Part shown: piece after piece, positions 16,391 through 34,240 of the stretch | How positions within the stretch are numbered: the stretch's first letter is position 1 | Layout of the letters: each line of letters starts with the position of its first letter | Origin: Deltaproteobacteria bacterium | GTDB lineage: Bacteria; Desulfobacterota; RBG-13-43-22 | Length of the DNA: 34,775 nt | Assembly: GCA_016219225.1 (NCBI GenBank) | Contig: JACRBX010000162.1 | Location: 1 to 34,775 of the forward strand | Direction: 5' to 3' | Position numbers and translations under genes: made by a program | The notes under the pieces: model-generated | What the model was told of the DNA's origin: nothing | What the model saw: the letters and a program-made list of their open reading frames with translations, nothing else | The model's database searches: none

Positions 16391-16394
16391 CTTA

Positions 16395-16410
16395 TTGTTT
16401 ATATAAACAA
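16395..16410. promoter_or_regulatory. Perfect 16-bp palindrome between acsD and acsA
   Basis: TTGTTTATATAAACAA is an exact palindrome five bases after the acsD stop. It has the form of an operator for a dimeric regulator, but it could also be fortuitous in AT-rich spacer DNA. No promoter hexamers are clear around it. Confidence 0.4.
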
Positions 16411-16415
16411 GATCA

Positions 16416-16440
16416 GAAGATAGTCCAGGAGACTGTCTTC
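16416..16440 (+). promoter_or_regulatory. Intercistronic hairpin just before the acsA ribosome binding site
   Basis: GAAGATAGTC, loop CAGGA, GACTGTCTTC: a 10-bp stem with one T-G wobble and a 5-nt loop. It ends two bases before the AAGGAGG of acsA. There is no T-run, so it is not a terminator. It may stabilise or mark processing of the mRNA between acsD and acsA and so set the ratio of their products; inference. Confidence 0.5.
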
Positions 16441-16457
16441 CCAAGGAGGAACATAAT

Positions 16458-18500: not shown

Positions 18501-18542
18501 TTTTCATTTTAAAGACCTCTTAAGAAAGGAGGAACGTGTTTC

Positions 18543-20756
18543 ATGTCTAAATTAGTTGCTTTTGCCGCCGTTCAGGGGGCCTATAATATCGTTTCCAAAG
18601 CGGAGGGGACCTTGAAAAAGGCCCTGGACAAATACGGACCGGATCAGAAGATCGAGTTTCCCAATACCGCTTATTATCTACCCATTATCTATTCCATCCT
18701 GGGGATCCCGGTAAAAACACTGGGCGACGCCAAGAAACCCATGGATGTGGCCAGAAAACTTCTGCCGGCCCACATTAAAAACATGTACAACCTGCCCTAC
18801 CTGGGGCCCTTACTCGATGCCGGGATGGCTTCCCTTTTTGCCGAAGAAGTGGCCGAGGCCATTCGCTACCTGGAAGATCCCGATTTCTACTTAGTCAGTG
18901 AAGACATCGACGAGGCCTCGGGCAAGATCTGGCTGGGGGCGGCCGAGGATACGGTCTTCCGGAAAAGGGGCGTTGAGTTTGTGGACGGCACGGCACCTGG
19001 TTTTGCGGCCATCGTCGGCGCCGCCCCGGACCCGGAGACGGCCAAATGGATCGCCGAGGAATACCAGAAAAAGAACCTCTATGTTTTTATGTGCGCCAAC
19101 CAGAGCGGCACCACTTTTTCCGAGCAGCTTCTGGAAGCCGGCGTCCAAATCGGCTGGAACACCCGTCTGGTCCCCTTCGGCCCGGACATTTCGGCCGCGG
19201 TCTTTGCCCTGGGTTTTGCCAACCGGGCGGCCATGGCCTTCGGCGGGATCAAACCCGGCGATTATAAAAAAATGTTACACTATAATAAGGACCGGATCTT
19301 TGCCTTTGTCAATGCCCTGGGTGATGTCAACGCCGAGTGGGCGGCCAATGCCGCCGGCTGCGTCAATTGGGGCTTTCCGACCATCGCCGATACGGACATC
19401 CCGGAGATTTTACCCACTGGCGTCTGTACCTATGAGCACGTGGTGGCCAATGTGAACCACCGTGACATGCCCCAGAAGTCCATCGAAATCCGGGGCCTCA
19501 AGGTCACCGTGGCCAATGTCGCAATACCTTTGGCCTACGGCCCGGCCTTCGAGGGCGAGCGGGTCCGCAAGGAAGACCTGTATCTCGAGATGGGCGGCGG
19601 CAAGACCCAGGCCACCGAGCTGGTCCAGATGGCCGATATGAATGCCATCGAAGACGGAAAGGTGATCGTTGAGGGTCCGGATGTGGGTGATATTAAAAAA
19701 GGGGATCGCCTGCCCTTGGGGATCCTGGTCCAGGTGGCCGGCCGCCAATTCCAGGAAGACTTCGAACCCATCCTGGAGCGGCAGATCCACCATTTGATCA
19801 ACTACGCCCAGGGGGTCATGCACATCGGACAAAGGGATATCGCCTGGGTCCGGGTGGGAGAGCCGGCTGTTCAAAAAGGGTTCACCTTGAAGGACATCGG
19901 GGTCATCCTCCACGCCAAGTACCATCAGGATTTCGGGGCCATCCTGGATAAGGTCCAGGTCACCCTGTATACCAAAAAGGAAGACGTGGACAAGCTGACC
20001 AAAAAGGCCCGAGCCATTTATCGGACCCGTGACGAACGGGTGGAGAAGATGACCGACGAGAGCGTGGAAACTTATTATTCCTGCACGCTGTGCCAGTCCT
20101 TCGCCCCCAACCATGTCTGCATGGTCAGCCCGGAGCGGACCGGCCTCTGCGGGGCCTATAACTGGATGGACTGCAAGGCCTCTTTTGAGATCAACCCCAC
20201 CGGGCCGAACCAGCCCGTTCAAAAAGGGGAGTGTCTGGATCCCAAACTGGGTCAGTGGAAAGGGGTCAACGATTTCGTGTATAAGGCCTCCCGCCAGAAG
20301 GTGGAAGGCTATAACTTCTACAGCCTGGTCTATGATCCCATGACCACCTGCGGCTGCTGCGAATGTATCGCCGCGGTCCTGCCCTCCTGCAACGGGGTCA
20401 TGACCGTCAACCGCGATTATACCGGCATGACGCCTTCGGGAATGAAGTTCACCACCCTGGCCGGGGTCATGGGCGGCGGGGCTTCTTCGCCGGGCTTTGT
20501 CGGGCACAGCAAGTTCAACATTACCCAGAGAAAATTCATTCTCGGTGACGGCGGATTGCTGCGCATGGTCTGGATGCCCAAGCAGCTTAAGGAAGAGCTC
20601 CGCGACCGCTTGATTAAACGGGGGGAAGAGTTGGGTTACCCCAACCTGATCGACATGATTGCCGACGAGACCGTAGGCATGTCCGAGGATGAGATCCTGC
20701 CCTTTCTCCAGGAGAAGGGCCATCCGGCCGTGTCCATGGAATCGATTGTAGGATAA
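18543..20756 (+). CDS. acsB: CO-methylating acetyl-CoA synthase
   Basis: Joins CO, a methyl group and CoA at the Ni-Ni-[4Fe4S] A-cluster. The 737 residues give a three-domain bacterial-type enzyme, including the N-terminal CODH-binding domain. A-cluster ligands are intact: C514, C517, C526 and C536 (spacing 3-9-10, the same as Moorella C506/509/518/528), and the C603-G604-C605 motif within TCGCCECI, which corresponds to C595-G-C597. The start is ATG 18543 after AGAAAGGAGGAACG. It lies 42 bp downstream of acsA, in the usual order. Nothing suggests loss of activity. Confidence 0.97.
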   Translation: MSKLVAFAAVQGAYNIVSKAEGTLKKALDKYGPDQKIEFPNTAYYLPIIYSILGIPVKTLGDAKKPMDVARKLLPAHIKNMYNLPYLGPLLDAGMASLFAEEVAEAIRYLEDPDFYLVSEDIDEASGKIWLGAAEDTVFRKRGVEFVDGTAPGFAAIVGAAPDPETAKWIAEEYQKKNLYVFMCANQSGTTFSEQLLEAGVQIGWNTRLVPFGPDISAAVFALGFANRAAMAFGGIKPGDYKKMLHYNKDRIFAFVNALGDVNAEWAANAAGCVNWGFPTIADTDIPEILPTGVCTYEHVVANVNHRDMPQKSIEIRGLKVTVANVAIPLAYGPAFEGERVRKEDLYLEMGGGKTQATELVQMADMNAIEDGKVIVEGPDVGDIKKGDRLPLGILVQVAGRQFQEDFEPILERQIHHLINYAQGVMHIGQRDIAWVRVGEPAVQKGFTLKDIGVILHAKYHQDFGAILDKVQVTLYTKKEDVDKLTKKARAIYRTRDERVEKMTDESVETYYSCTLCQSFAPNHVCMVSPERTGLCGAYNWMDCKASFEINPTGPNQPVQKGECLDPKLGQWKGVNDFVYKASRQKVEGYNFYSLVYDPMTTCGCCECIAAVLPSCNGVMTVNRDYTGMTPSGMKFTTLAGVMGGGASSPGFVGHSKFNITQRKFILGDGGLLRMVWMPKQLKEELRDRLIKRGEELGYPNLIDMIADETVGMSEDEILPFLQEKGHPAVSMESIVG

Positions 20757-20760
20757 AAAA

Positions 20761-20848
20761 AACAGCTAACAGCGGTCAGCCTTCAGCACTCAGCAACGAC
20801 TTTTTATCAAGTTTAGGCTGATAGCTGATAGCTGACTGCTGAATACTT
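20761..20848. repeat. Imperfect inverted-repeat element between acsB and acsC
   Basis: The left arm is built of 'CAGC' units (CAGCTAACAGCGGTCAGCC..., 20763-20792), and the right arm of complementary 'GCTGA' units (GCTGATAGCTGATAGCTGAC, 20817-20836), around a 24-nt spacer. Such 'AGCTGATAGCTGA' palindromes are a type of dispersed intergenic repeat. In the transcript it would fold into a long, imperfect stem-loop ahead of the acsC ribosome binding site. Confidence 0.55.
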
Positions 20849-20865
20849 TATATAAGGAGATACAC

Positions 20866-22206
20866 ATGGGATTAACAGGCATTCAGATTTTCAAGCTGCT
20901 GCCCAAAACCAACTGCGGGGATTGCGGGGTACCTACCTGCCTGGCCTTTGCCATGAACCTGGCCTCCGGCAAGGCAGAGCTGGCCTCCTGCCCCTATGTT
21001 TCTGAGGAAGCCAAGGCACAGTTGGCGGAGGCCTCGGCCCCGCCCATTCGCCCATTAACCATTGGGGCCGGCGATCATATGGTCAGGACAGGAGGGGAGA
21101 CGGTTCTGTTCCGCCATGAAAAAACCTTCTTTAACCCTACCGGTTTTGCCGCCCTGCTGACTACCGATATGGGTGAGGAGGTTGTTTCGGCCAAACTGAA
21201 GAAATGGGACACCTACCAGTATGAGCGTGTGGGATTGACCTTAAGACCGGAACTGGTGGCGGTGAAGGATATGACCGGAGATGCCGGTCAGTTCAAAAAA
21301 ACCGTTCAACAGGTTTTTGAAACCAGCAACTTCAGTCTTATTTTGATGAGTGAGAAACCCGAAGTCCTGAAGGAAGGGCTTGCGGCCTGTCCCGGGGGCC
21401 GGCCCCTGCTCTATGCCGCCACCGATGCCAACTGGCAGGCCATGGCCGAGTTGGCCAAAGAAGCCAATTGTCCCCTGGCCGTCAAAGGAGATGGTTTGGC
21501 AGGCTTAATTTCCCTGACCGATAAGCTGACCAAAGCCGGATTAAAGGATCTGGTCCTGGATTCCGGGGCCAGGGCCGTTAAAAAGGTCTTTGAAGACCAG
21601 ATTGCTATTCGCCGGGCCGCCCTTTCCGGAAAAGAGAAAGGCTTGGGGTTCCCGACCATCTGTCTGCCCTTTGAAATGGCCAAGGACCTGGAAACGGAGA
21701 CCCTGATGGGGGCCGTCATGGTCGCCAAATACGGCGGGTTGGCCGTCTTTTCCGACTTTGAAGGACAGACCATTTTCCCCCTCCTCTTGGAACGGCTGAA
21801 TATCTTTACCGATCCGCAGCGCCCCATGACCGTAACCCAGGGGATCTATGAAATCAACGGACCGGACGAAAATTCACCGGTCCTGGTTACCTCCAACTTC
21901 TCCCTGACCTATTTTATCGTTTCCGGAGAAATCGAAAGCAGCCGGGTGCCCAGTTGGCTTTGTATTATGGATACCGAGGGCTTGTCGGTCATGACCGCCT
22001 GGGCGGCCGGCAAATTCGTCGGGGATGCTGTCGGGATCTTTATTAAAAAAAGCGGGATCGCCGACAAAGTCAAGCACCGCAACCTGATTATCCCAGGGTA
22101 TTCGGCGGCTATTGCCGGAGACCTGGAAGAGGAGCTGCCGGGCTGGACCATTAAGGTCGGCCCCCGGGAAGCGGCCCATATCCCCAAGTTCCTTCGGGAG
22201 CTCTAA
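20866..22206 (+). CDS. acsC: Corrinoid iron-sulfur protein large (gamma) subunit
   Basis: Carries the cobamide that receives the methyl group from AcsE and hands it to AcsB. The N-terminal domain binds a [4Fe-4S] cluster with C17, C20, C25 and C42 (TNCGDCGVPTC...ASC), at the same positions as in the Moorella protein. The remainder is a TIM barrel followed by a Rossmann-like corrinoid-binding domain (TYFIVSGEIESSRVPSWLCI..., near residues 345-445). The 446-residue length is normal. The start is ATG 20866 after TAAGGAGATA. It lies 109 bp after acsB, the gap being filled by an inverted-repeat element. Confidence 0.96.
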   Translation: MGLTGIQIFKLLPKTNCGDCGVPTCLAFAMNLASGKAELASCPYVSEEAKAQLAEASAPPIRPLTIGAGDHMVRTGGETVLFRHEKTFFNPTGFAALLTTDMGEEVVSAKLKKWDTYQYERVGLTLRPELVAVKDMTGDAGQFKKTVQQVFETSNFSLILMSEKPEVLKEGLAACPGGRPLLYAATDANWQAMAELAKEANCPLAVKGDGLAGLISLTDKLTKAGLKDLVLDSGARAVKKVFEDQIAIRRAALSGKEKGLGFPTICLPFEMAKDLETETLMGAVMVAKYGGLAVFSDFEGQTIFPLLLERLNIFTDPQRPMTVTQGIYEINGPDENSPVLVTSNFSLTYFIVSGEIESSRVPSWLCIMDTEGLSVMTAWAAGKFVGDAVGIFIKKSGIADKVKHRNLIIPGYSAAIAGDLEEELPGWTIKVGPREAAHIPKFLREL

Positions 22207-22248
22207 AGTAGTAACGAGAAACCGGTACCGGGGAAAGAAAGTTTTTTC

Positions 22249-22276
22249 TCGTCACTCGTCACTCGTCACTCGTCAC
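22249..22276. repeat. Four tandem copies of TCGTCAC between acsC and acsE
   Basis: TCGTCAC repeats exactly four times (28 bp), ending just upstream of the AAAAGGAG site of acsE. Copy number of such heptamers can change by slippage. It lies in the transcribed spacer; effect unknown. Confidence 0.75.
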
Positions 22277-22298
22277 TATTTTTTAAAAGGAGAATATT

Positions 22299-23177
22299 AT
22301 GTTTACCATTGGAGAAAATCTCAATGTAATCAACAAAGGGATCGGCCGGGCCTTTAAGGAAAAAGATCCCAAACCGATCCGGGAGATGGCCGAAAAGCTG
22401 GCTCAAGCCAAGGTGGATTTTATTGATATCAACCTGGGACCGGCCAGAAAAAACGGTGAAGAGCTGATGCCCTGGGTGATCCAGACCGTTCAGGAAGTCA
22501 CCGATATCCCCCTGGCCCTGGACACCTCCAACATCGGGGCCATCGAGGCCGGGTTGAAGGTGCATAAGGGAAAGGCCATCATCAACTCCATCATGGCCCG
22601 TCCCGAACGGTACACGGCCATGATCCCCATCTGTAAGCAATACGACGCCATGATGATCGCCCTGCTCTGGGGACCGGACGGTCTGCCCAGGGATGAAAAT
22701 GAGCGAGCGGCCCTGGCCGTCGAGCTTTTGTATGCGGCCAACGAGGCCGGTATCCCCAACGAAGACATCTTTGTGGATCCGATCATTACCCCGGTCAACA
22801 TCCAGCAGCAGCAACTGATGAGCACCCTGACCTTCATGAGCATGCTCCAGGACATCGCCCCCGGGGCCAAGTCCACCTGCGGCTTGTCCAACGTCTCCAA
22901 CGGGCCCCCGGATCATCTGCGGCCCATTCTCAATCAAACCTATATGATTATGCTGGAGCGGAACGGTATGTATTCCTGCATCGTCGATGGCTTTGATGAG
23001 AAGATTCTGCAAATCGCCCGAGGCGAACGGTCCGACATCGTCGAGATCGTCCATAAGGTCATGGACGGCGAGGCCATTAATCTGGGCAGCCTGTCCAAAG
23101 AGATGGTGGATTATGTCAAAACGGCCAAGGTTATCCTGGGCCAAACCCTTTTTTCCGATTCCTGGCTGGAGATCTAA
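22299..23177 (+). CDS. acsE: 5-methyltetrahydrofolate:corrinoid iron-sulfur protein methyltransferase
   Basis: Moves the methyl group from methyl-H4folate to the cobalt of AcsCD, linking the folate branch to acetyl-CoA synthesis. It has the pterin-binding TIM-barrel motifs: FTIGENLNVINKGIG, FIDINLGPAR, IPLALDTSNIGAIEAGL, KAIINSIM, IFVDPIITPV and STCGLSNVSNGPP, with the conserved Asp and Asn residues of the family. At 292 residues it is about 30 longer than the Moorella enzyme, mainly at the C terminus. The start is ATG 22299 after AAAAGGAGAAT. Last gene of the operon; a strong terminator follows. Confidence 0.95.
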   Translation: MFTIGENLNVINKGIGRAFKEKDPKPIREMAEKLAQAKVDFIDINLGPARKNGEELMPWVIQTVQEVTDIPLALDTSNIGAIEAGLKVHKGKAIINSIMARPERYTAMIPICKQYDAMMIALLWGPDGLPRDENERAALAVELLYAANEAGIPNEDIFVDPIITPVNIQQQQLMSTLTFMSMLQDIAPGAKSTCGLSNVSNGPPDHLRPILNQTYMIMLERNGMYSCIVDGFDEKILQIARGERSDIVEIVHKVMDGEAINLGSLSKEMVDYVKTAKVILGQTLFSDSWLEI

Positions 23178-23258
23178 GCCAGCATCGTCATTCCGGGCCA
23201 GCCAAGGGCGACCCGGAGTCCGGTTTTAACCGGTTTTGAAATTGTATTTTTTTATCTG

Positions 23259-23294
23259 ACGGCCATTTTCTTTCTTGAAAATGGCCGTTTTTTT
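23259..23294 (+). terminator. Rho-independent terminator of the acs operon
   Basis: ACGGCCATTTTC, loop TTTCTT, GAAAATGGCCGT: a perfect 12-bp stem with a 6-nt loop, followed directly by seven T. It lies 82 bp after the acsE stop, and marks the end of the five-gene transcript. Confidence 0.93.
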
Positions 23295-23446: not shown

Positions 23447-23520
23447 GATCCCCCATTGAGGCAGGAAAACCATTCGGGCAGTGCGCCTGATGGCGGAACA
23501 TACTGATATAGGGGGACTTT

Positions 23521-26500
23521 ATGAAATCATTCAAATGGCTCCTGGTGGTTATTTTATTTTTTTCAGGCTTCTTTATCGTCAAAAATTATGTCTATTCCAC
23601 AACACCACCCCCTGAGGACCTTTCCAGCATCCCATTGGAAGGGGAACCTCGCAATCTGGTCATAAACCCCTATACCGATCAGGCTCTGGTCACAAGCACC
23701 AGGCCCAACGAATTATCGGTTATCGACCTGAATACCGGGCAGATAACGGCCACCCTCCAGGTAAAGAAGAAACCCTTTGGATTGGCCATCGATTGCGGGA
23801 AGAATCTGGCCCTGGTGGGTTTTAAGGCCCACCAGCGACTGTCTGTGATCGATCTTTCCACCTATCAATGCCTGGCTGAGATCCCTGTTGGAAAATCTCC
23901 CTGTAATGTGGCTGTTTATGAGGCCGCCGGCGGTCCTCATCTGGGCCTGACCGCCAATTATGGGTCCGATACGGTCTCTGTTATTAATCTGGAGACCTTC
24001 AGAGTCATTAAAACCCTCCGGGTTGGAAGAGGGCCGCGGGATATCGCCATAGACCCGGGACTTAAACTGGCTCTGGTGGTCAATGAAGATACCCATAATG
24101 TTGCGGTTATTGATCTTAACAGCTTCCGGGTCAGCGGCTGGGTCCCTGTCGGGCGCCATCCCCGGAGTATCAGCATTAATCCCGAGACCCACCTGGCAGC
24201 CGTGGCTAATGGCCGGGAAAATTATATCACCACAATCGATTTGACCAACTGGCAAAGCCTTCGGATTCCGGTGGATAAAAACCCCCTGGATGTGGTGATC
24301 AATCCTTTGGATAACCGGGCCCTGGTGGTCTGTAATAAATCCCATAGCCTCCATCTGATAGACTTAGATACCCATACCACCCTCCAAAAATATCCTTTAA
24401 ACCGTCAAACCAGAGGCGTGGCCGTCAACCCTTTCACCAATATAGCCGGGGTGGTGGATAGACATACGGACCGCCTGACCCTTATTCAATTACCCAATCC
24501 GGTGCCGGATATTAAAAGCATTACCCCGGTTACGGTCCTCCGGGGCAGCCAGGGGACCCAAGTAAGTCTTCAGGGTTCGGGGTTTATTAAAAGCTCTACG
24601 GTAACCCTTCAGCCATCCCCGGCCACCTTCCCGGTTACCTTCGTCGACAATCACAACCTGACCGCAACCCTTCCTGCCGGCTTCTTTACCCAGGCCGGGT
24701 CCTATCAGGTAACCGTTAACAACCCCACTCCGGATGGCGGTCCATCCAATACCAGGACCTTTCAGGTGGAAAACCCCATTCCGACCCTGACCGCCCTGGA
24801 CCCGGCCTCGACCCGGGCCGGAGGACCGGGAATGAACGTGAAGCTCTACGGCACCGGATTTTTCCCGGAGACCACCATTTCGGTCAACGGGCAGGCCCGG
24901 ACCATCAACTATGTCAGCGGGAGCGAGCTTGAGCTGCCCCTTGGCCCGGCCGACCTGGCCTCTTCCGGTGACCTGGAGTTGAAGGCCATCAACCCAGGCC
25001 CTGGAGGCGGCTCCTCCAACCCGATGAACTTTACGGTTACAGTGGTAAATCCAATACCGGTCTTATCCTCCCTGAGCCCGAACGTCATAAAGGCCGGCAG
25101 CCCGAGCTTTACCCTGATCCTGACCGGGAGCAACTTTATCAGCAGCTCATCGGTCCTGTTCAATAACACCCCGGTTTCCGGCACCTTGGTGGATAATACC
25201 CGGATCGAGGCTTCTATCCCCGGGACGGCCATCATGACACCCGGCACTTACCCGGTTGTGGTCCAAAACCCCGGACCGGGAGGCGGCAGCTCAGGAACCC
25301 TGAATTTCACCGTTACCCCGGCTTCAAACGTCCTCCCCCTTCCCGACGGCTCCTTTGGCAAAACCTATGAAGACCTCATCCCCCCGGATGCCACCCTTCC
25401 AAGCTATGACCCGAAACGCTTTTCCTTGATTACCGGGTTGGTCAAAGATGGATCGGGGAATCCTTTAGCCGGAGTGGCCGTAGGCATCCACGGTCAATCG
25501 GAATATGGAACGGCCCAAAGCGATGCCACCGGCCGCTTTTCCATCCCCCTGGACGGAGGGGGGACGATCACGGTAGCCTATCAGAAAACCGGTTTCATCC
25601 CGGCCCACCGTCAGGTCCAGGTGGGTTGGAATACCATCGCCAATGTGGAGACCATCGTCCTGATCCCGGAGGATACCGCGGCCACGGTTATCAACTTTGA
25701 CGGCAACGCCGCCACCATTTTGACCCACAAAAGCACCCCTACTACCGATTCTTTCGGCAGCCGGTCCCTGACCATGGTCTTAACCGGGGACAACCGGGCC
25801 TGGGTCAAAGACGCCCAGGGGAATGAACAGCCCCTGACCAATATCACGGTCCGGGCCACCGAATACCCCACGCCGGAGTCCATGCCGGCCAAGCTCCCGC
25901 CCACCTCAGCCTTTACCTATTGCGCCGAGCTCTCTGTGGGCGGGGCCAAGAGTGTGCGGTTCGAGAAACCGGTGGTGGTCTATGTGGACAACTTCCTGGG
26001 CTTTGATGTGGGTGAGATCGTGCCGGTCGGCTACTACGACCGCGACCGGGCCGTCTGGGTGCCGGCCAATAACGGCTTGGTGGTCCAGCTTCTCGATACC
26101 AACGGAGACGGCCTCGTCGATGCCTATACAACAGATGGACAGAACCAATATCCTGCTCCTGGGCTGACCGATCCGAATCAATATAGACCGGGGGCCACCT
26201 ACTGGCGGATGGAACTTAGCCACTTTTCTCCTTGGGATTGCAATTGGCCGATAGGATTTCCTTCCGGTGCAATTTCACCCAACCCGGATGGGAAACCTGT
26301 TATAGACAGAAAATGCCCTGATGATGATAAGAGATGTATTAACTCTTACATTGAAGAACGAAGCCGGATTTTTCATGAGGATATCCCCATTCCCGGTACG
26401 GATATGACCCTCCATTATGCCAGTGATCGGACAAAGGGGTATAAATCAGTAATCACAATTCCGGCAAGTGGACCCAGTGTCCCGGCAAGTCTTAAAGGTA

Positions 26501-29500
26501 TCATTGTCAAATTGGAAGTGGCTGGACGATCTTTTGAAACAAATCTTCCTCCCCTACCAAACCAAATGGCAGAATTTGTTTGGGATGGCTTCGATTATCT
26601 CGGCAGAGAGGTATCCGGTTCGACCATAGCCGATATTAGTATAGGTTTTATTTATCAGGCAGTTTATTATTCAGCCTTTGACAGTAGTTGGTTTCAATCA
26701 TTTGCCCTGGTGGGAAAGGACCCAACCTATATTGATGCCAGATCTGAGGCGATTTCCTGGAAACGGGATTCGATAACCCTCAATCAAGGGGCAACCGAGG
26801 CGGGAGCCTTGGCTGACGGTTGGACTCTTTCATCCCATCATTATTTCCATCCCACTGATCCATATACCCTGTATAAAGGAGACGGGACAACAATTAAGAA
26901 TAATACAAAAGTCATTACCACCATTGCCGGCAATGGGCAGGCAGGCTATAGTGGAGACGGAGGACCGGCTACCCAGGCAAATCTTTACGCCCCAGGTGGC
27001 ATAGTATTAGATAGTGCAAGGAATATTTATATAGCAGATGGTTGGAATGACCGTATAAGAAAAGTGGATACCAATGGGATTATTAGTACCATCGCCGGAA
27101 ATGGTCAGCGAAGTTTCAGTGGAGATGGAGGCCCCTCTTTACAAGCAAGTTTTTTTTATCCGAGTCATGTTACATTGGATAATGCTGGAAATATTTATAT
27201 AGCGGACTTTAGTAATCACCGTATAAGAAAAGTGGATACCAATGGAATTATAACCACCATCGCTGGAAACGGTCAGGGAGGGGAGTATGTGCCGTTTGTT
27301 GGAGATGGAGGCCCGGCTACACAGACGCCTCTTGGCTATATAAATGGAATAGCAATAGATAATGCCGGGAATCTTTATATTGCAGATGGTTGGTATAACC
27401 GTATAAGAAAGGTAGATATAAATGGGATTATCACAACTATTGCTGGTAATGGGCAGTGGGGTTACAGTGGAGATGGAGGTCCGGCCACACAGGCACGCCT
27501 TGGTAACCCGAATGGAGTGGCAGTAGATAACGCGGGAAACATCTATATAGTAGATGGATACAACACGAATCGAATAAGGAAGGTGGATGTCACCGGTATT
27601 ATTACTACTTTTGCCGGGGATGGTCAGGCGGGTTATAGTGGGGATGGAGGACCTGCTGTCCAGGCCAGTCTAAGTGGGGTAGGTGGTATAGCGGTGGACA
27701 ATTCAAAGAATATTTATATAGGAGATAGTTGGGGCAACCGCATCAGAAAGGTGGATACTAATGGTATTATCACCACCATTGCCGGAAATGGCCAGCAAGG
27801 ATACAGTGGGGATGGAGGTCTGGCTATTCAGGCAAATCTTTGGGGGGTAAATTATTTAGCAGCAGATAGTGCAGGTGCTGTATATTTAGGAGATAATGGA
27901 AATCATCGGATAAGGAAGGTATCCTATCCGGATGCTTTCAAGTCTGTTGACACGGCCGGAAACACCGACTTCTCCGATGAAAATGGCCAAGGCTATATCA
28001 TGAGCAGCACCGGTCTCCACAAATCCACTATTGATTTGGCCGCGGGAAAGACATTGCTTACTTTTGGTTACGATTCGGCCAATAAATTGGTCTCCATTAC
28101 CGACCGATTCGGCAACCAGACGACGCTCCAGAGAGATAGAAGCGGGGCACCTATTTCAATCACCTCACCGGATGGAATTGTGACCCGATTGACCGTGGAT
28201 GGCAATAACCATCTGACCCTCGTCACCTATCCGGATAATTCCGCTTATTCCTTCATCTATACTTCTGATGGCCTCATGGCCGAGAAATACGACCCCAAAG
28301 GGAATCATTTCGTCCATCAATTCGATGCCAACGGATTGATTACCAATGTCTTTGATCCGGAGGGCGGAATCTGGAACTATTCACGGAGTGTGGATAATTC
28401 CGGGACCGCTACGGTCACCCTGCAAACCGCCGACGGCAATGTCACCACCTACCAGGATCGTACGGATTCAACCGGGGCTTATACCTCCATCACAACCAGT
28501 CCCTTCGGCTCTATAAGTACCTTTACTCGTTCATCGGATGGGCTCACCGAAACCGAGCGACCTTCCTGCGGCATGAATCAGACCCTGAAATACGACCTTG
28601 ATCCGGCCTACAAATATAAGTACCTCAAAGAATTCACCCAAAGTTCCCCCTCAGGGCTAACCCAGACAACCACAGATACGAGGACATATCAGGACACCGA
28701 TGGGGATACGGTGCCTGATCTGATTACCAGAACCCTGAGTGCAAACGGCAATAACTGGGTCACCGTTAATAATACGTTGACCGGGACTTTGACCAGTACC
28801 TCGCCTTTGGGAAGGACTATAATCCGCAGCTATGATCCTTCAAATCTGCTCACCCAAAGTATGTCCGTAACGGGTCTTCTGCCTGTCAGCTATGGATACG
28901 ACACCAAAGGGAAGCTAACCGCCACCACAACCGGGAGCAGGACCTCCACGATTACTTATAATAACCAGGGTAATATCGAAAGCCTGACCGCCCCGGATGG
29001 GAAGACATTTTATTATACCTATGATACAATGAATAGACTTAAAACCCAGACCATGCCGGATACCACTATGATTCGCTATGATTATGATGCCAACGGCAAC
29101 ATGACCGTGCTGACCAATTCCAGAAATGTGAATTATGGCTTCGATTACACCGGCGTGAACCTGCGCAAGACCATGACCATGCCACTGTCTGGAAATTATC
29201 AATACTTTTATGACAGAGAACGTAATTTAAAATCCATTCTTTTTCCATCAGGAAAGCAGATTGACAATACATACAGTGCCGGTCTCCTCAGCGCCACTAC
29301 CACCCCGGAAGGAATTACCAGCTACACACACAACTGCAGTTCAAGCCTCAAGGATGTGACCAGAGGTACAGAAAAGGTAACCTATACCTATGATGGCTCC
29401 CTGCTAACCTCCGACACCCGCACAGGTCTGCTGAATCAGACCATCGGATATGGTTACAACAGCGACTTTCGTTTGACATCGTTAAGCTATGCCGGCATCT

Positions 29501-30900
29501 CTCAGCCCTTAGCCTATGACAACGACGGATTGTTGAGCGGTGCCGGAGGATTTACCATAACCCACTCTGCGCAGAATGAATTGCCGGTATCGGTTTCAGA
29601 TGGAACCATGACCAATACCGGTACCTTCAGCGGATATGGGGAACTAGATGGAAGGGTTTATTCTAATGGCGAAGCTAATAAATACAGTTACAATCTGATC
29701 CGTGATCTGGCTGGAAGGATCACCCAAAAGGTTGAGACGTTGGAAGGGATGACCGATACCTATGACTACGCATACGATACCACTGGCAAGCTGACCGAGG
29801 TCAAGAAAAACGGCTCGACGGTCGAAAGCTATACCTATGATCCCAACGGTAATCGCTCGACTGAGGTAAATAGTCTACGAGGAATTAACCGTTCTTATAC
29901 CTTCTCATCTGAAGATCATGTCATCACTGCCGGAGCCGAAACCTACCAGTTCGATGAGGATGGGTTTCTGACCCAAAAGACAAGCATAGCAGGAACCATG
30001 GCCACGACCTATTCCTCCCGAGGTGAACTCTTTTCGGCAATCCTTCCAGGAGGCATAAGCATAACTTATGACCATGACCCCATGGGCAGAAGAATAGCCA
30101 AAAGAGTCAATGGGATGATTATTGAAAAATATCTCTGGAAGGATGCTATTACACTTTTGGCTGTCTATGATGCCGCGGACAATCTCCTTATGCGTTTTAC
30201 CTATGCTGACGGTAGAATGCCGGTCTCCATGAGTTATAACGGAAGCACCTATTACCTTATTTATGATCAAGTTGGTTCCTTAAAAGCAGTTATCGATTCA
30301 GCCGGAAATATCATAAAACGCATTGACTATGATTCCTTCGGAAGTATAATCACTGACACCAATCCTTCACTACGGATTCCCTTTGGCTTTGCTGGCGGTC
30401 TCCATGATCGAGATTCCGGTCTTGTCCGCTTCGGCGCCCGGGACTATGACCCTTCCATCGGACGATGGACCGCCAAGGATCCGATAGATTTTAGTGGAGG
30501 AGATACTAATCTCTATGAGTATGGTCAAAATAATCCTTTGAACTTTATTGATCCCACAGGTTTAAAGGTTATGCTATGTGCAAGACAAGCATTCGCGAGT
30601 GATTGGAGAAAAAAAGACAAGACCTATTTAATCCCGCACTGTTATATTGTTGCGGGTGGTCAAATTTTTAGTTGGAATGTGCAAGCCGGTGGCGGGATCC
30701 ACAATAATGAATATCCAGAAAAGAATAGTTGTAGTGAAATTAAATGTTGCGGTGATAAAGCAGCTTTTGAAAATTGTGTCATCAAAGAAGCTAATGCTGC
30801 TCGCGGCCATGAAGGAAATACCTGGGTTCCCACAATTCATGATTGTTGTACTTGGGCACATGGTATAGTTGGAAAGTGTATGAAAAAACATTGTAAATAA
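23521..30900 (+). CDS. Giant exported teneurin-like YVTN/TIG/NHL/RHS polymorphic toxin-type protein
   Basis: 2459 residues. Order: Sec signal or anchor (7-20); seven YVTN-like beta-propeller repeats (about 38-335); three IPT/TIG domains (about 333-600, ending 'NPGPGGGSS'); a carboxypeptidase-regulatory-like domain (about 637-718); a linker with paired Cys; six NHL repeats (about 1131-1470); RHS/YD repeats (about 1480-2300); the RHS core end RFGARDYDPSIGRWTAKDPID...DPTG (to 2347); and a variable C-terminal domain (2348-2459). In RHS toxins the YD repeats form a shell that holds the C-terminal toxin, which is cut off after the DPxG region. The C-terminal domain has nine cysteines, H2373 (PHCYIV) and C2442/C2443 (HDCCTWAHG), a His-then-Cys order like permuted papain-type amidases; this is inference. 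A small membrane protein gene follows after 7 nt. No type VI secretion genes are near, so Sec export is more likely. Confidence 0.9.
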   Translation: MKSFKWLLVVILFFSGFFIVKNYVYSTTPPPEDLSSIPLEGEPRNLVINPYTDQALVTSTRPNELSVIDLNTGQITATLQVKKKPFGLAIDCGKNLALVGFKAHQRLSVIDLSTYQCLAEIPVGKSPCNVAVYEAAGGPHLGLTANYGSDTVSVINLETFRVIKTLRVGRGPRDIAIDPGLKLALVVNEDTHNVAVIDLNSFRVSGWVPVGRHPRSISINPETHLAAVANGRENYITTIDLTNWQSLRIPVDKNPLDVVINPLDNRALVVCNKSHSLHLIDLDTHTTLQKYPLNRQTRGVAVNPFTNIAGVVDRHTDRLTLIQLPNPVPDIKSITPVTVLRGSQGTQVSLQGSGFIKSSTVTLQPSPATFPVTFVDNHNLTATLPAGFFTQAGSYQVTVNNPTPDGGPSNTRTFQVENPIPTLTALDPASTRAGGPGMNVKLYGTGFFPETTISVNGQARTINYVSGSELELPLGPADLASSGDLELKAINPGPGGGSSNPMNFTVTVVNPIPVLSSLSPNVIKAGSPSFTLILTGSNFISSSSVLFNNTPVSGTLVDNTRIEASIPGTAIMTPGTYPVVVQNPGPGGGSSGTLNFTVTPASNVLPLPDGSFGKTYEDLIPPDATLPSYDPKRFSLITGLVKDGSGNPLAGVAVGIHGQSEYGTAQSDATGRFSIPLDGGGTITVAYQKTGFIPAHRQVQVGWNTIANVETIVLIPEDTAATVINFDGNAATILTHKSTPTTDSFGSRSLTMVLTGDNRAWVKDAQGNEQPLTNITVRATEYPTPESMPAKLPPTSAFTYCAELSVGGAKSVRFEKPVVVYVDNFLGFDVGEIVPVGYYDRDRAVWVPANNGLVVQLLDTNGDGLVDAYTTDGQNQYPAPGLTDPNQYRPGATYWRMELSHFSPWDCNWPIGFPSGAISPNPDGKPVIDRKCPDDDKRCINSYIEERSRIFHEDIPIPGTDMTLHYASDRTKGYKSVITIPASGPSVPASLKGIIVKLEVAGRSFETNLPPLPNQMAEFVWDGFDYLGREVSGSTIADISIGFIYQAVYYSAFDSSWFQSFALVGKDPTYIDARSEAISWKRDSITLNQGATEAGALADGWTLSSHHYFHPTDPYTLYKGDGTTIKNNTKVITTIAGNGQAGYSGDGGPATQANLYAPGGIVLDSARNIYIADGWNDRIRKVDTNGIISTIAGNGQRSFSGDGGPSLQASFFYPSHVTLDNAGNIYIADFSNHRIRKVDTNGIITTIAGNGQGGEYVPFVGDGGPATQTPLGYINGIAIDNAGNLYIADGWYNRIRKVDINGIITTIAGNGQWGYSGDGGPATQARLGNPNGVAVDNAGNIYIVDGYNTNRIRKVDVTGIITTFAGDGQAGYSGDGGPAVQASLSGVGGIAVDNSKNIYIGDSWGNRIRKVDTNGIITTIAGNGQQGYSGDGGLAIQANLWGVNYLAADSAGAVYLGDNGNHRIRKVSYPDAFKSVDTAGNTDFSDENGQGYIMSSTGLHKSTIDLAAGKTLLTFGYDSANKLVSITDRFGNQTTLQRDRSGAPISITSPDGIVTRLTVDGNNHLTLVTYPDNSAYSFIYTSDGLMAEKYDPKGNHFVHQFDANGLITNVFDPEGGIWNYSRSVDNSGTATVTLQTADGNVTTYQDRTDSTGAYTSITTSPFGSISTFTRSSDGLTETERPSCGMNQTLKYDLDPAYKYKYLKEFTQSSPSGLTQTTTDTRTYQDTDGDTVPDLITRTLSANGNNWVTVNNTLTGTLTSTSPLGRTIIRSYDPSNLLTQSMSVTGLLPVSYGYDTKGKLTATTTGSRTSTITYNNQGNIESLTAPDGKTFYYTYDTMNRLKTQTMPDTTMIRYDYDANGNMTVLTNSRNVNYGFDYTGVNLRKTMTMPLSGNYQYFYDRERNLKSILFPSGKQIDNTYSAGLLSATTTPEGITSYTHNCSSSLKDVTRGTEKVTYTYDGSLLTSDTRTGLLNQTIGYGYNSDFRLTSLSYAGISQPLAYDNDGLLSGAGGFTITHSAQNELPVSVSDGTMTNTGTFSGYGELDGRVYSNGEANKYSYNLIRDLAGRITQKVETLEGMTDTYDYAYDTTGKLTEVKKNGSTVESYTYDPNGNRSTEVNSLRGINRSYTFSSEDHVITAGAETYQFDEDGFLTQKTSIAGTMATTYSSRGELFSAILPGGISITYDHDPMGRRIAKRVNGMIIEKYLWKDAITLLAVYDAADNLLMRFTYADGRMPVSMSYNGSTYYLIYDQVGSLKAVIDSAGNIIKRIDYDSFGSIITDTNPSLRIPFGFAGGLHDRDSGLVRFGARDYDPSIGRWTAKDPIDFSGGDTNLYEYGQNNPLNFIDPTGLKVMLCARQAFASDWRKKDKTYLIPHCYIVAGGQIFSWNVQAGGGIHNNEYPEKNSCSEIKCCGDKAAFENCVIKEANAARGHEGNTWVPTIHDCCTWAHGIVGKCMKKHCK
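26911..27930 (+). repeat. Six NHL-type repeats of about 168 bp in the RHS gene
   Basis: Six successive units of roughly 56 codons, each with the pattern ITTIAGNGQ-GYSGDGGPA-Q--L---G-A-DNAGNIYIADG--NRIRKVD-NG. Units begin near 26911, 27082, 27247, 27424, 27601 and 27769. They would form a six-bladed propeller. The DNA is visibly more AT-rich than the flanking TIG region, and the units are alike enough for unequal crossing-over to change their number. Confidence 0.85.
29458..30552 (+). repeat. RHS-core direct repeat, copy 1 (inside the full gene)
   Basis: The 3' RHS-core segment of the giant gene, from codons N-S-D-F-R to I-D-P-T, is repeated at 31203-32300 in the same orientation with clear nucleotide identity (for example AGAAGAATAGCCAA and GTCAATGGGATGAT occur in both) and only one net codon difference. 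The repeats flank the first C-terminal domain and its small membrane protein. Confidence 0.85.
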
Positions 30901-30907
30901 CAATCTC

Positions 30908-31195
30908 ATGGACCAAAATTTATTAATCGGATACATCACTTATTTGTTGATATTTTTTCTTTCAACAACCAGTCCCCTCTTTATATTTTTTAAAACTCGG
31001 TTGATGAAAGAAATTTGTGTCTTAATCAGTCTCGTTCTGAGTATTGGTTTAATCAATCTCTATTTTCATATTGGAGGAAAAATGAACTTGGGTTCAACCG
31101 CTTTTTTGGGTGAATTTTATGAAATTTTTTGGGTAATCCCTCCCATAGTTACATATTTTTCCTGTCTATCATTAAAAAAAGGACACAACAATTAA
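30908..31195 (+). CDS. Small membrane protein, candidate immunity protein 1
   Basis: A 95-residue protein with three predicted membrane helices (residues about 6-28, 33-54 and 69-88). I do not recognise a family. The ATG lies 7 nt after the stop of the giant RHS gene, and the gene ends where the duplicated RHS core begins. That is the position of an immunity gene in RHS loci. Immunity by a membrane protein would fit a toxin acting in the envelope or periplasm. The coding sequence is AT-rich compared with the RHS core. Function is inferred from position alone. Confidence 0.6.
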   Translation: MDQNLLIGYITYLLIFFLSTTSPLFIFFKTRLMKEICVLISLVLSIGLINLYFHIGGKMNLGSTAFLGEFYEIFWVIPPIVTYFSCLSLKKGHNN

Positions 31196-31202
31196 ATATT
31201 TT

Positions 31203-32300
31203 AACACCGATTTTCGGCTGGCCTCTTTGAGTTATTCCGGGGCATCCCAATCCTTCACTTATGATAACGACGGTCTCTTGACCGGCGCCGGTTCATTCAC
31301 CATAACCCGTAATGCCCAGAATGGATTACCGGAAAGCATCAATGACGGAATTCTAAATACTACTCGTACATTCAGCGGGTATGGGGAACTGGATGCCCTA
31401 TCTTATGCCATTGCCGGAAACATTCTATACGGCTATACTCTGACCAGAGACCTTGGCGGCAGGATCACCCAAAAAGTCGAGACCCTTGGTGGAGCAACCG
31501 ACACCCATGATTATACCTATGATGCCAACGGGAGACTTACCGAAGTAAAGAGAAACGGGTTAGCAGTCGAGGCTTATTCCTATGATGCCAACGGCAACCG
31601 AATCCAGGAGACCAATGCCTTCAAAGGCTTCACCGACCGTCCTTATACCTTTTCTACCGAAGATCATCTTATCACCGCCGGTCCCGATACATACCAATTT
31701 GACCCTGATGGCTTCTTGATCCAGAAAACAACCCCCTCCGGAACCATGACCACCAGCTACTCTTCCCGGGGTGAACTCCTTTCTGCCACCCTGCCGGGAG
31801 GCACTACCGCCACCTACGATCATGACCCTATGGGAAGAAGAATAGCCAAGAGAGTCAATGGGATGATCACTGAAAAATATCTTTGGGCAAACATAATTAC
31901 CCTTCTGGCCGTTTATGACGGTAATGACAACCTATTAATGCGCTTCAACTATGCCGACAGTCGAATGCCGGTTTCCATGACCTACAATGGAAGCACCTAT
32001 TATTTCTTCTATGATCAGGTCGGCTCTCTCAAAGCCGTAAGCGATTCGGCGGGAAATATTTTAAAACGGATTGACTACGATTCCTTTGGCAGTATAATCA
32101 ATGATAACAATCCTTCTCTAAGGATTCCCTTTGGCTTTGCCGGTGGTCTTCATGACCGGGATACCGGTTTGGTTCGCTTTGGTGCCCGAGACTATGACCC
32201 GGCCATAGGCCGTTGGACTGCCAAAGATCCGATTGATTTTGCGGGTGGAGATACGAATCTATTTATGTATATAGCAGGAGACCCGGTAAATGGGATAGAT
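31203..32300 (+). repeat. RHS-core direct repeat, copy 2 (displaced)
   Basis: Homology to 29458-30552 starts at codon N of NTDFR (31203), eight bases after the stop of the small membrane protein gene, and continues through DPMG. Frame is kept over the whole copy, so a crossover anywhere in it would fuse the upstream RHS gene in frame to the second C-terminal domain. Confidence 0.85.
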
Positions 32301-32723
32301 CCGATGGGACTTTTCGGCGCTGGTTTGAATGCTGGAGAAAAATTCCTTGGGCACAGTGATTTTGTGGGAAATGATAGATTTGACTGGAATAAGGAAGACT
32401 ATGACTGGATGACAAGTCCATTTAATCCTTTTTCAACATGGCGTCATTTTAGAGATCTTTATCATGTCTTACCTGAGATAGAGTCAGCAGTTATTTCTTG
32501 TGATAAAAATAAATTTGAAAGACTGATGCATCAGGCCCAGGATTATTATTCTCACTTTCGTGCGGGTTATAGAGCACATGGCACTAAAAACCATCCACTT
32601 GTTGGCCATATTCTTGATGGAACGAGACCTGATAAAAATGCCATAGCATGGGAGGATGCAAATAATTTCACAATAAATATGATCAAGAAATGGGATAATA
32701 ACTGCAAATGCAAAAGAAAATAG
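31227..32723 (+). CDS. Orphan RHS-core fragment with an alternative C-terminal domain
   Basis: About 360 residues of RHS core (YDNDGLLTGAGSF..., GRRIAKRVNGMITEKYLW, RFGARDYDPAIGRWTAKDPIDF, ending DPMG) followed by a 137-residue domain unrelated to that of the upstream gene. The frame stays open upstream of the first plausible start (TTG 31227) back to 31176, and no ribosome binding site is evident, so it may be silent until recombined with the full gene. The C-terminal domain contains H435, D439, H443, H461 and D464 in HQAQDYYSHFRAGY...GHILDG, a His/Asp pattern like the alpha-helical zinc-dependent phospholipase C fold; this is inference. A second small membrane protein follows. Confidence 0.8.
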   Translation: MSYSGASQSFTYDNDGLLTGAGSFTITRNAQNGLPESINDGILNTTRTFSGYGELDALSYAIAGNILYGYTLTRDLGGRITQKVETLGGATDTHDYTYDANGRLTEVKRNGLAVEAYSYDANGNRIQETNAFKGFTDRPYTFSTEDHLITAGPDTYQFDPDGFLIQKTTPSGTMTTSYSSRGELLSATLPGGTTATYDHDPMGRRIAKRVNGMITEKYLWANIITLLAVYDGNDNLLMRFNYADSRMPVSMTYNGSTYYFFYDQVGSLKAVSDSAGNILKRIDYDSFGSIINDNNPSLRIPFGFAGGLHDRDTGLVRFGARDYDPAIGRWTAKDPIDFAGGDTNLFMYIAGDPVNGIDPMGLFGAGLNAGEKFLGHSDFVGNDRFDWNKEDYDWMTSPFNPFSTWRHFRDLYHVLPEIESAVISCDKNKFERLMHQAQDYYSHFRAGYRAHGTKNHPLVGHILDGTRPDKNAIAWEDANNFTINMIKKWDNNCKCKRK

Positions 32724-32756
32724 TTGGTAAAGTTAATACATGGAACGAATTATAGC

Positions 32757-33092
32757 ATGACGATTAAAGTTTTCAAACAGAATGTAACCATTTGGCTTTT
32801 TATAACAATATTTTCTCTTCTTATCGGCATCATAGCTGCGGGGGGCGGGGACGGCTCTTATGTTCCGTTAAAATTATTGTTTCCGTTTATGATGTTGTCT
32901 ACGATTTTTAAGGATAGGATTGATACACCATTCATAATCTTTTTGTTCATTCAGTTTCCTCTATACGGACTACTGATAAATGCAGCTAAGAAGAAAGGCA
33001 ATTCCGTTTTGTGGATAACGACTTCTTTAATTATAACAATTCATTTCACTATTGTTTATATTTGTTTTAGATATGGCAGTAAATACTTTTAG
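32757..33092 (+). CDS. Small membrane protein, candidate immunity protein 2
   Basis: A 111-residue protein with about four hydrophobic stretches (TIWLFITIFSLLIGIIAAG, LKLLFPFMMLSTIF, FIIFLFIQFPLYGLLI, LWITTSLIITIHFTIVYICF). No family recognised. It follows the orphan RHS cassette as the 95-residue protein follows the full gene, but the two proteins are not alike in sequence, as expected if each is matched to a different toxin. Start taken at ATG 32757; a TTG directly after the RHS stop (32724) would add 11 residues. Function is inferred from position. Confidence 0.55.
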   Translation: MTIKVFKQNVTIWLFITIFSLLIGIIAAGGGDGSYVPLKLLFPFMMLSTIFKDRIDTPFIIFLFIQFPLYGLLINAAKKKGNSVLWITTSLIITIHFTIVYICFRYGSKYF

Positions 33093-33724: not shown

Positions 33725-34240
33725 ATGAAAAAAATCTTTCTCATTTTTATTCTGACTTACCTGGTCTTGCATTTTAATGAAAGGGCAGGAGCCGATTTAT
33801 TCAAATGGGTGGACCCAAAAGGAGTAATCCATATTTCCGATCACCCCCCGCAAAATAAGGAAGTAAAGGGACCGGTCGAATCACTTCCGATCAATAAAGA
33901 AGGCCCTGGACCTAAGAGCCCACCTCATGCAGAGACCCAAAGCCGGTTTGACAAACCCGCACAGACGGCCAATACGGATAAAGAATTAAAGCAACCTAAA
34001 ACGCCTCGAGTCGAAATTTATACTACAAGTTGGTGTCCCTATTGCAGGCAAGCACGCGGCTTTTTTCAGTCGCGCGGCATTTCTTTTACGGAATATGACA
34101 TTGAAAGGGACAAAAACGCCGCCCTTCGTTTAAAAGAAATGAACCCCAGAAAAGGAGTCCCCTTAGCCATAATCAACGGGCAACGTGTCCTTGGTTTTTC
34201 GGAAGCTTCGTACAAAAAGGCATTAAAAGAGACTCCTTAG
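33725..34240 (+). CDS. Exported DUF4124-glutaredoxin fusion protein
   Basis: A 171-residue protein. A signal peptide (KKIFLIFILTYLVLHFNERAGA) leads into a DUF4124 segment (DLFKWVDPKGVIHISDHPP, residues about 24-42), a Pro/Lys-rich linker (about 43-94) and a glutaredoxin domain (95-171) with the redox motif C104-P-Y-C107 and the GVPLAIINGQRVLGFSE glutathione-site region. It probably acts as a thiol-disulfide oxidoreductase outside the cytoplasm, though its substrate is unknown. The architecture is common in Gram-negative bacteria. It starts at ATG 33725, with no strong ribosome binding site, and appears to stand alone. Confidence 0.88.
   Translation: MKKIFLIFILTYLVLHFNERAGADLFKWVDPKGVIHISDHPPQNKEVKGPVESLPINKEGPGPKSPPHAETQSRFDKPAQTANTDKELKQPKTPRVEIYTTSWCPYCRQARGFFQSRGISFTEYDIERDKNAALRLKEMNPRKGVPLAIINGQRVLGFSEASYKKALKETP

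What the first reader, a model, noticed from the sequence alone, without database searches (positions are those of the whole stretch)
23521..30900. Teneurin-like architecture: YVTN propeller, TIG, NHL, then RHS shell
One chain carries two different propellers, three TIG domains and a carboxypeptidase-regulatory-like fold before the RHS shell. NHL followed by YD repeats is the order found in animal teneurins. The long N-terminal part probably displays or anchors the RHS capsule at the cell surface.
Basis: partly seen in the sequence, partly recalled or inferred. Interest (0 to 1): 0.6.

Follow-up and report, generated by a model that had tools for sequence, protein, structure and literature searches.

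The report
Bacterial teneurin-like toxin with spare tip
This is a bacterial relative of the animal nerve-wiring proteins called teneurins, a hollow protein shell that very likely carries a toxin; such proteins were described in 2018 and 2026, so this is a new member of a known kind, notable mainly because a spare toxin tip with its own candidate protective gene lies just downstream.

Summary
One intact 2459-aa ORF (23521-30900) encodes, in order: Sec-type N-terminal segment, seven-bladed YVTN propeller, three Ig/TIG-like domains, TTR (carboxypeptidase-regulatory-like), a ~190-aa TIP domain, FN-plug, six-bladed NHL propeller, YD/RHS shell with intact autoproteolysis residues, and a 111-aa C-terminal tip. 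It is not merely teneurin-like: residues 626-2388 match the solved bacterial Teneurin-Like Protein BiTLP (1009 bits), and an AlphaFold2 model of residues 930-2129 (pLDDT 89) has BiTLP as best PDB match (TM 0.83), then animal teneurins, with T6SS Rhs proteins far below. Same-genus and more distant relatives carry the architecture in one ORF, so no frameshift joined two genes. Bacterial TLPs are already published as polymorphic toxins with downstream immunity genes, so this is a new member of a known kind. Such displaced tips lie behind 8 of 38 TLP genes examined; the held main text on TLPs does not mention them, although the arrangement is classical for rhs genes. Surface display remains an inference.

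The parts
23258..23289 (+). intrinsic-terminator-like hairpin that ends the upstream CODH/ACS gene set; the TLP gene starts its own unit
   Evidence: 13-bp stem, 6 GC, followed by T run
23510..23515 (+). ribosome-binding-type sequence AGGGGG, 5 nt before ATG 23521
   Evidence: sequence read directly
23521..23598 (+). N-terminal hydrophobic segment, residues 1-26 (Sec signal peptide or anchor; no Cys in first 60 residues)
   Evidence: helix 2-22 in model; similar hydrophobic starts ending VxS/T in L103, L037 and, after an upstream extension, L033; no lipobox Cys
23626..24489 (+). seven-bladed YVTN propeller, residues 36-323
   Evidence: TIGR02276 E 2.5e-25; 28 strands in the model; best PDB fold match 1l0q archaeal S-layer YVTN propeller, then YncE among the best
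24508..25317 (+). three TIG/Ig-like domains, residues 330-599
   Evidence: NF058597 three stretches, E 3.7e-65; Ig-like strands in the model. Pfam TIG itself did not reach E 1
25408..25662 (+). TTR / carboxypeptidase-regulatory-like domain, residues 630-714
   Evidence: PF25020 TTR_TEN1-4 E 4.7e-17, PF13620 E 1.4e-9
25678..26250 (+). TIP domain (Teneurin insertion protein), residues ~720-910
   Evidence: collinear with the TIP stretch of BiTLP between TTR and FN-plug; highly conserved in 52 aligned sequences; folded in the model
26338..26901 (+). FN-plug, residues ~940-1127, with conserved Ser942 (= BiTLP Ser724, the published cleavage site)
   Evidence: PF24329 E 3e-4; BiTLP alignment; Ser invariant in 9 TLPs and >=90% in 53
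26902..27960 (+). six-bladed NHL propeller, residues 1128-1480
   Evidence: PF25021 E 2e-49, six stretches; six GDGG repeats about 56 residues apart; model
27988..30564 (+). YD/RHS shell and Rhs-associated core, residues 1490-2348; autoproteolysis residues Arg2307, Asp2320, Asp2344, predicted cut after Leu2348
   Evidence: PF25023 E 2.2e-46, TIGR03696 E 6.7e-22; same spacing as BiTLP R2103/D2116/D2140/L2144 (PMC13018210)
30565..30897 (+). C-terminal tip (putative toxin), residues 2349-2459, Cys-rich, no recognised family
   Evidence: no hit in Pfam, PDB, plasmids or phages; in 395 genomes of the phylum only itself and four weak matches at E 0.003-0.009
30908..31195 (+). small membrane ORF, 95 aa, 7 nt after the TLP stop: probable cognate immunity gene
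   Evidence: two hydrophobic stretches; small ORF adjacent in 41 of 42 TLP loci; no known family
31203..32309 (+). displaced half-shell (C-terminal part of the YD shell plus Rhs core with R, D, D motif)
   Evidence: 72.7% DNA identity over 1064 nt to the intact gene's 29458-30512, begins about 8 nt after the first immunity-type ORF
32310..32720 (+). second, unattached tip (137 aa), with an HxxQDxxxH motif also in the attached tip of the congener G001
   Evidence: 25% identity to L033 tip, alignment A2; no Pfam hit
32724..33092 (+). second small membrane ORF, 122 aa: probable immunity gene of the second tip
   Evidence: directly after the orphan stop; hydrophobic stretches read from sequence; no family

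Best explanation
A bacterial Teneurin-Like Protein: a Sec-exported polymorphic toxin. [quoted passage not shown] the Rhs core cuts the chain after Leu2348, leaving the 111-residue tip sealed inside; the YVTN propeller, TIG, TTR and TIP domains in front display or dock the capsule at the cell surface or on a target. The tip is released into a neighbour by an unknown trigger; the small membrane protein encoded 7 nt downstream protects the producer. The second half-shell, tip and small membrane ORF behind it are a displaced toxin/immunity cassette that can exchange with the attached tip by recombination in the shared half-shell. Shown here: the domain order, fold, catalytic residues, the adjacent small ORF, the displaced cassette, and unrelated tips in the sequenced congeners. 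Inferred: toxicity, immunity, surface display, tip exchange by recombination.
For: 1009-bit match to BiTLP, 357 bits to Ten3; teneurin-specific Pfam models in order; AlphaFold2 model with best PDB hit 9ifo BiTLP TM 0.83, teneurins 0.58-0.65, T6SS Rhs 0.19-0.42; R/D/D/L autoproteolysis residues at exact BiTLP spacing and the conserved FN-plug Ser; attached tips differ completely between congeners while the rest is 64-67% identical, one being a prokaryotic PLA2 domain, PF09056 E 5e-9; small ORF right behind 41/42 TLPs; displaced same-strand half-shells behind 8/38 TLPs, up to 95% DNA-identical to the intact gene; a displaced tip in G001 (L033) is homologous to the attached tip of Desulfosarcina alkanivorans (E 1.5e-9). 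Published: TLP tips kill E. coli, and in the one pair tested (Methylosarcina fibrata) the neighbouring gene blocks the tip (PMC13018210).
Against: No experiment on this protein. Its tip matches no known toxin family, so its activity is unknown. FN-plug Pfam score is below the curated cut-off. No outer-membrane export route or anchor was identified; a T6SS marker is absent. The window's displaced half-shell is only 73% identical to the intact one, no closer than the congener orthologues, so exchange here is not recent. The published capsule chimeras remained toxic, so sealing inside the shell may not protect the producer.
Confidence: 0.86

Rival explanations
1. An ordinary Rhs or Tc-type toxin in which propellers were added independently; resemblance to teneurins is convergent.
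For: YD shells and propellers occur in many bacterial toxins; the same genome holds conventional RHS genes without the TTR-NHL front on contigs C115, C303, C330.
Against: TTR, TIP, FN-plug, NHL and shell all match BiTLP collinearly over 1760 residues; fold match to TLP/teneurin is far above T6SS Rhs and Tc; in Tc toxins the NHL-like propeller is inserted within the shell (PMC5851990); no T6SS sheath gene in a 99% complete genome.
Confidence: 0.03
2. A surface adhesin or communication receptor, like animal teneurins, with the tip no longer a toxin.
For: Adhesion-type N-terminal domains; teneurins act by adhesion; PMC13018210 leaves signalling roles open.
Against: Autoproteolysis residues are intact here but absent in mammalian teneurins; tips are polymorphic between congeners and followed by small immunity-type ORFs and displaced tips, as expected of toxins.
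Confidence: 0.08
3. Assembly chimera or frameshift that joined two genes (a surface propeller protein and an RHS gene).
For: The contig comes from a fragmented metagenome bin of 353 contigs.
Against: Congeners G001 and G002 and several Nitrospirota genomes carry the same fusion as one collinear ORF, 62-63% identical over residues 1-945 in the congeners.
Confidence: 0.01
4. The downstream half-shell is a dead partial duplication, not a reservoir for tip exchange.
For: It has only a TTG start without a clear ribosome site, and its half-shell is 73% identical, not recently homogenised.
Against: Reading frame, core motif and tip are intact; its tip is unrelated to the attached one; other loci show recent copies (95% in L069, 89% in L033); a displaced tip type in one genome is the attached tip type in others.
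Confidence: 0.3

Closest known systems
BiTLP, Bacillus inaquosorum Teneurin-Like Protein (PDB 9ifo, 9pt5; PMC13018210)
   Same: TTR-TIP-FN-plug-NHL-YD shell-Rhs core order, collinear 1009-bit match, same autoproteolysis residues and FN-plug Ser (residue before it is Asn here, Gly in BiTLP), model TM 0.83
   Different: N-terminal module is YVTN propeller plus TIG instead of bacterial Ig domains; tip unrelated; Gram-negative-type lineage; a displaced tip cassette downstream
Metazoan teneurins Ten2/3/4 and fly Ten-m (PMC5851990)
   Same: TTR, FN-plug, NHL, YD shell in the same order; same superfold (TM 0.58-0.65)
   Different: No EGF repeats, no ABD or Tox-GHH domain; TIP present, which PMC13018210 reports absent from metazoan teneurins; autoproteolysis residues intact; not the closest bacterial branch to animals in the tree
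T6SS Rhs effectors (RhsA, RhsP, Tre23, Tse5)
   Same: YD shell with Rhs core and exchangeable tip plus immunity
   Different: No TTR-TIP-FN-plug-NHL front there; weak fold match; no T6SS sheath gene in this genome
rhs C-terminal displacement arrays (Jackson et al. 2009, PMC2935791)
   Same: Partial core plus alternative tip lying dissociated behind an intact gene, same strand
   Different: Described for enterobacterial rhs; here behind teneurin-like genes

Membership tests
[quoted passage not shown]
   Pfam TEN models (FN-plug below cut-off) plus BiTLP alignment and AF2 model
Bacterial Teneurin-Like Protein (TLP) | TTR followed by a TIP domain before the FN-plug (TIP in 96% of TLPs) | tested here: met
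   PF25020 E 5e-17; TIP collinear with BiTLP and conserved in 52 aligned sequences
Bacterial Teneurin-Like Protein (TLP) | Rhs-core autoproteolysis residues (Arg, two Asp, DPxG-L) | tested here: met
   R2307, D2320, D2344, L2348 at BiTLP spacing
[quoted passage not shown]
   Ser942 conserved, preceded by Asn instead of Gly; cleavage itself not testable
Bacterial Teneurin-Like Protein (TLP) | Variable, short (~15 kDa) C-terminal toxin and downstream immunity gene | tested here: inconclusive
   111-aa tip unrelated to congeners' tips and a 95-aa membrane ORF 7 nt downstream; function not shown
Bacterial Teneurin-Like Protein (TLP) | Secretion signal and surface-adhesion modules at the N-terminus | tested here: inconclusive
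   Hydrophobic Sec-type start, YVTN and TIG modules; no signal predictor available, localisation untested
Metazoan teneurin | EGF repeats, ABD and Tox-GHH | tested here: not met
   No such Pfam hits up to E 1
T6SS Rhs effector | PAAR/VgrG association and a T6SS in the genome | tested here: not met
   TssB/VipA absent from the own genome; no PAAR domain in the protein
Tc toxin TcB-TcC | Shell built of two chains with the propeller inserted in the YD region | tested here: not met
   Single chain, propeller precedes the shell; Tc entries rank far below
rhs-type C-terminal displacement array | Dissociated core fragment plus different tip downstream, same strand | tested here: met
   31203-32720; 72.7% DNA identity over 1064 nt, tips unrelated

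The most novel reading that the evidence does not exclude
Teneurin-like toxins keep banks of displaced toxin/immunity cassettes and exchange their tips by C-terminal displacement, as classical rhs genes do. This would explain why their tips are polymorphic and how the animal lineage could have received a capsule with a tip unlike that of its nearest bacterial relatives. In addition, TLPs extend to Nitrospirota and Planctomycetota (Ca. Scalindua), beyond the six phyla listed in the 2026 survey.
Probability: 0.65. Interest if true: 0.42.

Novelty: new member of a known kind. Interest (0 to 1): 0.33.

Why it matters
Bacterial TLPs are thought to resemble the source of animal teneurins, yet how their tips change and how they are delivered is open. 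Loci with an attached and a displaced tip, each with its own small membrane ORF, in closely related genomes make tip exchange directly testable. The YVTN-TIG front module, shared with Nitrospirota TLPs, is a candidate docking device to test for surface display. The capsule itself is already published, so the gain is incremental.

Tried and rejected
Frameshift or chimera: rejected, relatives carry the same single ORF. Identity of the 111-aa tip: no hit in Pfam, PDB, plasmids or phages, only four weak matches in 395 genomes of the phylum; a papain/LRAT-like reading from His2373 and the HDCC stretch at 2440-2443 is only an eye impression and was not tested. A BLAST alignment that seemed to continue from P0001 into the G002 tip was spurious: that tip is a phospholipase A2 domain. 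Close affinity to animal teneurins: not supported; Ten3 groups on the BiTLP/Streptomyces/Methylobacter side, on a long branch, in a quick search without Paenibacillaceae. T6SS delivery: sheath gene absent. Viral carriage: two IMG/VR contigs only, not pursued. A plasmid hit in Paenibacillus was NHL only. A CODH/ACS search in viral contigs, made in passing, gave nothing.

Full report
What is there. The window is a complete 34,775-bp contig (C162) of a 5.9-Mb metagenome bin. Same-genus genome G001 has a contig of the same length as MGQB01000026.1, titled 'Deltaproteobacteria bacterium RBG_13_43_22', so the organism belongs to that deltaproteobacterial group. ORF 23521-30900 is intact, 2459 aa. 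It starts after a terminator that closes an unrelated CODH/ACS gene set and has its own AGGGGG ribosome-binding-type sequence.

Domain order. Profile searches and two AlphaFold2 models agree: hydrophobic N-terminal helix; seven-bladed YVTN propeller (36-323); three Ig/TIG-like domains (330-599); TTR (630-714); TIP (about 720-910); FN-plug (about 940-1127); six-bladed NHL (1128-1480); YD shell and Rhs core (1490-2348); tip (2349-2459). The TIG label rests on NF058597 and the Ig-like fold in the model; Pfam TIG did not hit.

Family. phmmer against solved structures gives 1009 bits over residues 626-2388 to BiTLP (9pt5/9ifo) and 357 bits to Ten3. Foldseek of the 930-2129 model ranks BiTLP first (TM 0.83), then all teneurins (0.58-0.65), then T6SS Rhs proteins (0.19-0.42) and Tc toxins. 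BiTLP catalytic residues R2103, D2116, D2140 and the last residue L2144 correspond to R2307, D2320, D2344, L2348 at identical spacing. The FN-plug Ser at which BiTLP is cut is Ser942, invariant in nine TLPs and in at least 90% of 53. By the criteria of PMC13018210 this is a bacterial TLP. That paper describes TLPs as polymorphic toxins with downstream immunity genes in six phyla; PMC5851990 already noted in 2018 that bacterial teneurin-like proteins are widespread.

Relatives. A pattern scan of 84,980 species genomes found 348 stretches encoding relatives of the TTR-TIP-FN-plug region; the 80 kept are mostly Thermodesulfobacteriota and Myxococcota (by submitter title), with Nitrospirota, Pseudomonadota, two Ca. 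Scalindua (Planctomycetota) and single Chlorobiota and Hydrogenedentota bins. Bins can hold foreign contigs; the Scalindua contigs are 87 and 129 kb and a Nitrospiria one 194 kb. All five held genomes of the window's family carry one. The YVTN-TIG front occurs in the window, its congeners, L034, L036, L037, L041 and five Nitrospirota loci. In the tree of FN-plug, NHL and the first part of the shell, the window groups with its congeners (SH-aLRT 99) inside a set with Nitrospirota TLPs (97); mammalian Ten3 lies across a 99-supported split with BiTLP, Streptomyces, Methylobacter and Archangium. That tree is a quick search, Ten3 is a long branch, and Paenibacillaceae, the published nearest kin of animals, are not in it.

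The toxin end. The attached tips of the three congeners are unrelated while the rest is 64-67% identical: here a Cys-rich domain of unknown fold; in G002 a prokaryotic phospholipase A2 domain (PF09056, E 5e-9); in G001 a tip with an HxxQDxxxH motif. A small ORF follows within about 170 nt in 41 of 42 TLP loci; here it is a 95-aa membrane protein 7 nt downstream. Small-ORF presence alone is weak evidence, since such ORFs are common by chance; the published co-expression test carries the immunity argument.

Displaced cassette. About eight nt after that ORF begins a half-shell 72.7% identical in DNA to 29458-30512 of the intact gene, with intact core motif, a different tip (32310-32720) and another small membrane ORF. 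This tip shares HxxQDxxxH with the attached tip of G001, but overall identity is only 25%. Displaced half-shells, all on the same strand, follow 8 of 38 intact TLP genes with at least 2 kb of downstream sequence: window, L026 (three short), L033 (three), L042, L069 (two), L086, L101, L102 (broken loci L040, L049, L081 left out by hand). The copies are 95% (L069) and 89% (L033) DNA-identical to their intact gene over 820-900 nt. One displaced tip of G001 is homologous to the attached tips of Desulfosarcina alkanivorans and L058 (E 1.5e-9 and 3e-8). This is the pattern of rhs C-terminal displacement (PMC2935791). The words orphan and cassette do not occur in the held main text of PMC13018210 and displacement only in a reference title; its supplements were not readable, so priority is not certain.

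Mechanism. Best supported: Sec export, capsule with the tip cut and sealed inside, N-terminal propeller and Ig-like domains for display or docking, release into a neighbour by an unknown trigger, producer protected by the membrane ORF, and tip exchange from the downstream cassette. The T6SS sheath gene is absent, secretins are present, so crossing the outer membrane is unexplained, as in the published work. Toxicity, immunity, display and exchange are inferences here.

Verdict. Observation confirmed; teneurin-like reading supported and sharpened to membership in bacterial TLPs; display claim plausible but untested; novelty limited to a new member with a YVTN-TIG front, extension to further phyla, and displaced tip cassettes.

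Noticed in passing
window 14831-23177 (+): Carbonyl branch of the Wood-Ljungdahl pathway: CdhD-like, CODH (Prismane family), ACS beta, CdhD/FeS and a pterin-binding methyltransferase, in a row. Different neighbours flank the TLP gene in congeners G001 and G002.
   Followed up: no
L030, L031, L032 (own genome contigs C303, C115, C330): Further RHS genes without the TTR-NHL front (1304, 1437, 688 aa), so the genome holds conventional Rhs proteins beside one TLP.
   Followed up: partly
L040, L041, L049, L053, L081: TLP reading frames that stop inside the NHL or shell; L040 and L081 resume in another frame downstream. Assembly errors, decay or switching cannot be told apart.
   Followed up: no
L035, L044, L045, L047, L051, L074, L089: Many attached TLP tips are glycine-rich and hydrophobic, reminiscent of membrane-acting tips such as that of BiTLP.
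   Followed up: no
model m5459cc513d7f (window residues 1-945): Plexin ectodomains (propeller then IPT/TIG arrays) are among the best fold matches of the N-terminal half, as loose whole-chain alignments.
   Followed up: no
L113, L114: Two IMG/VR contigs labelled viral encode TLPs; probably bacterial sequence, not checked.
   Followed up: no
L050: A TLP fragment on a 3.2-kb contig titled 'archaeon'; likely mis-binned.
   Followed up: no
window 33725-34240 (+): DUF4124 domain fused to a glutaredoxin-type domain, 171 aa.
   Followed up: no
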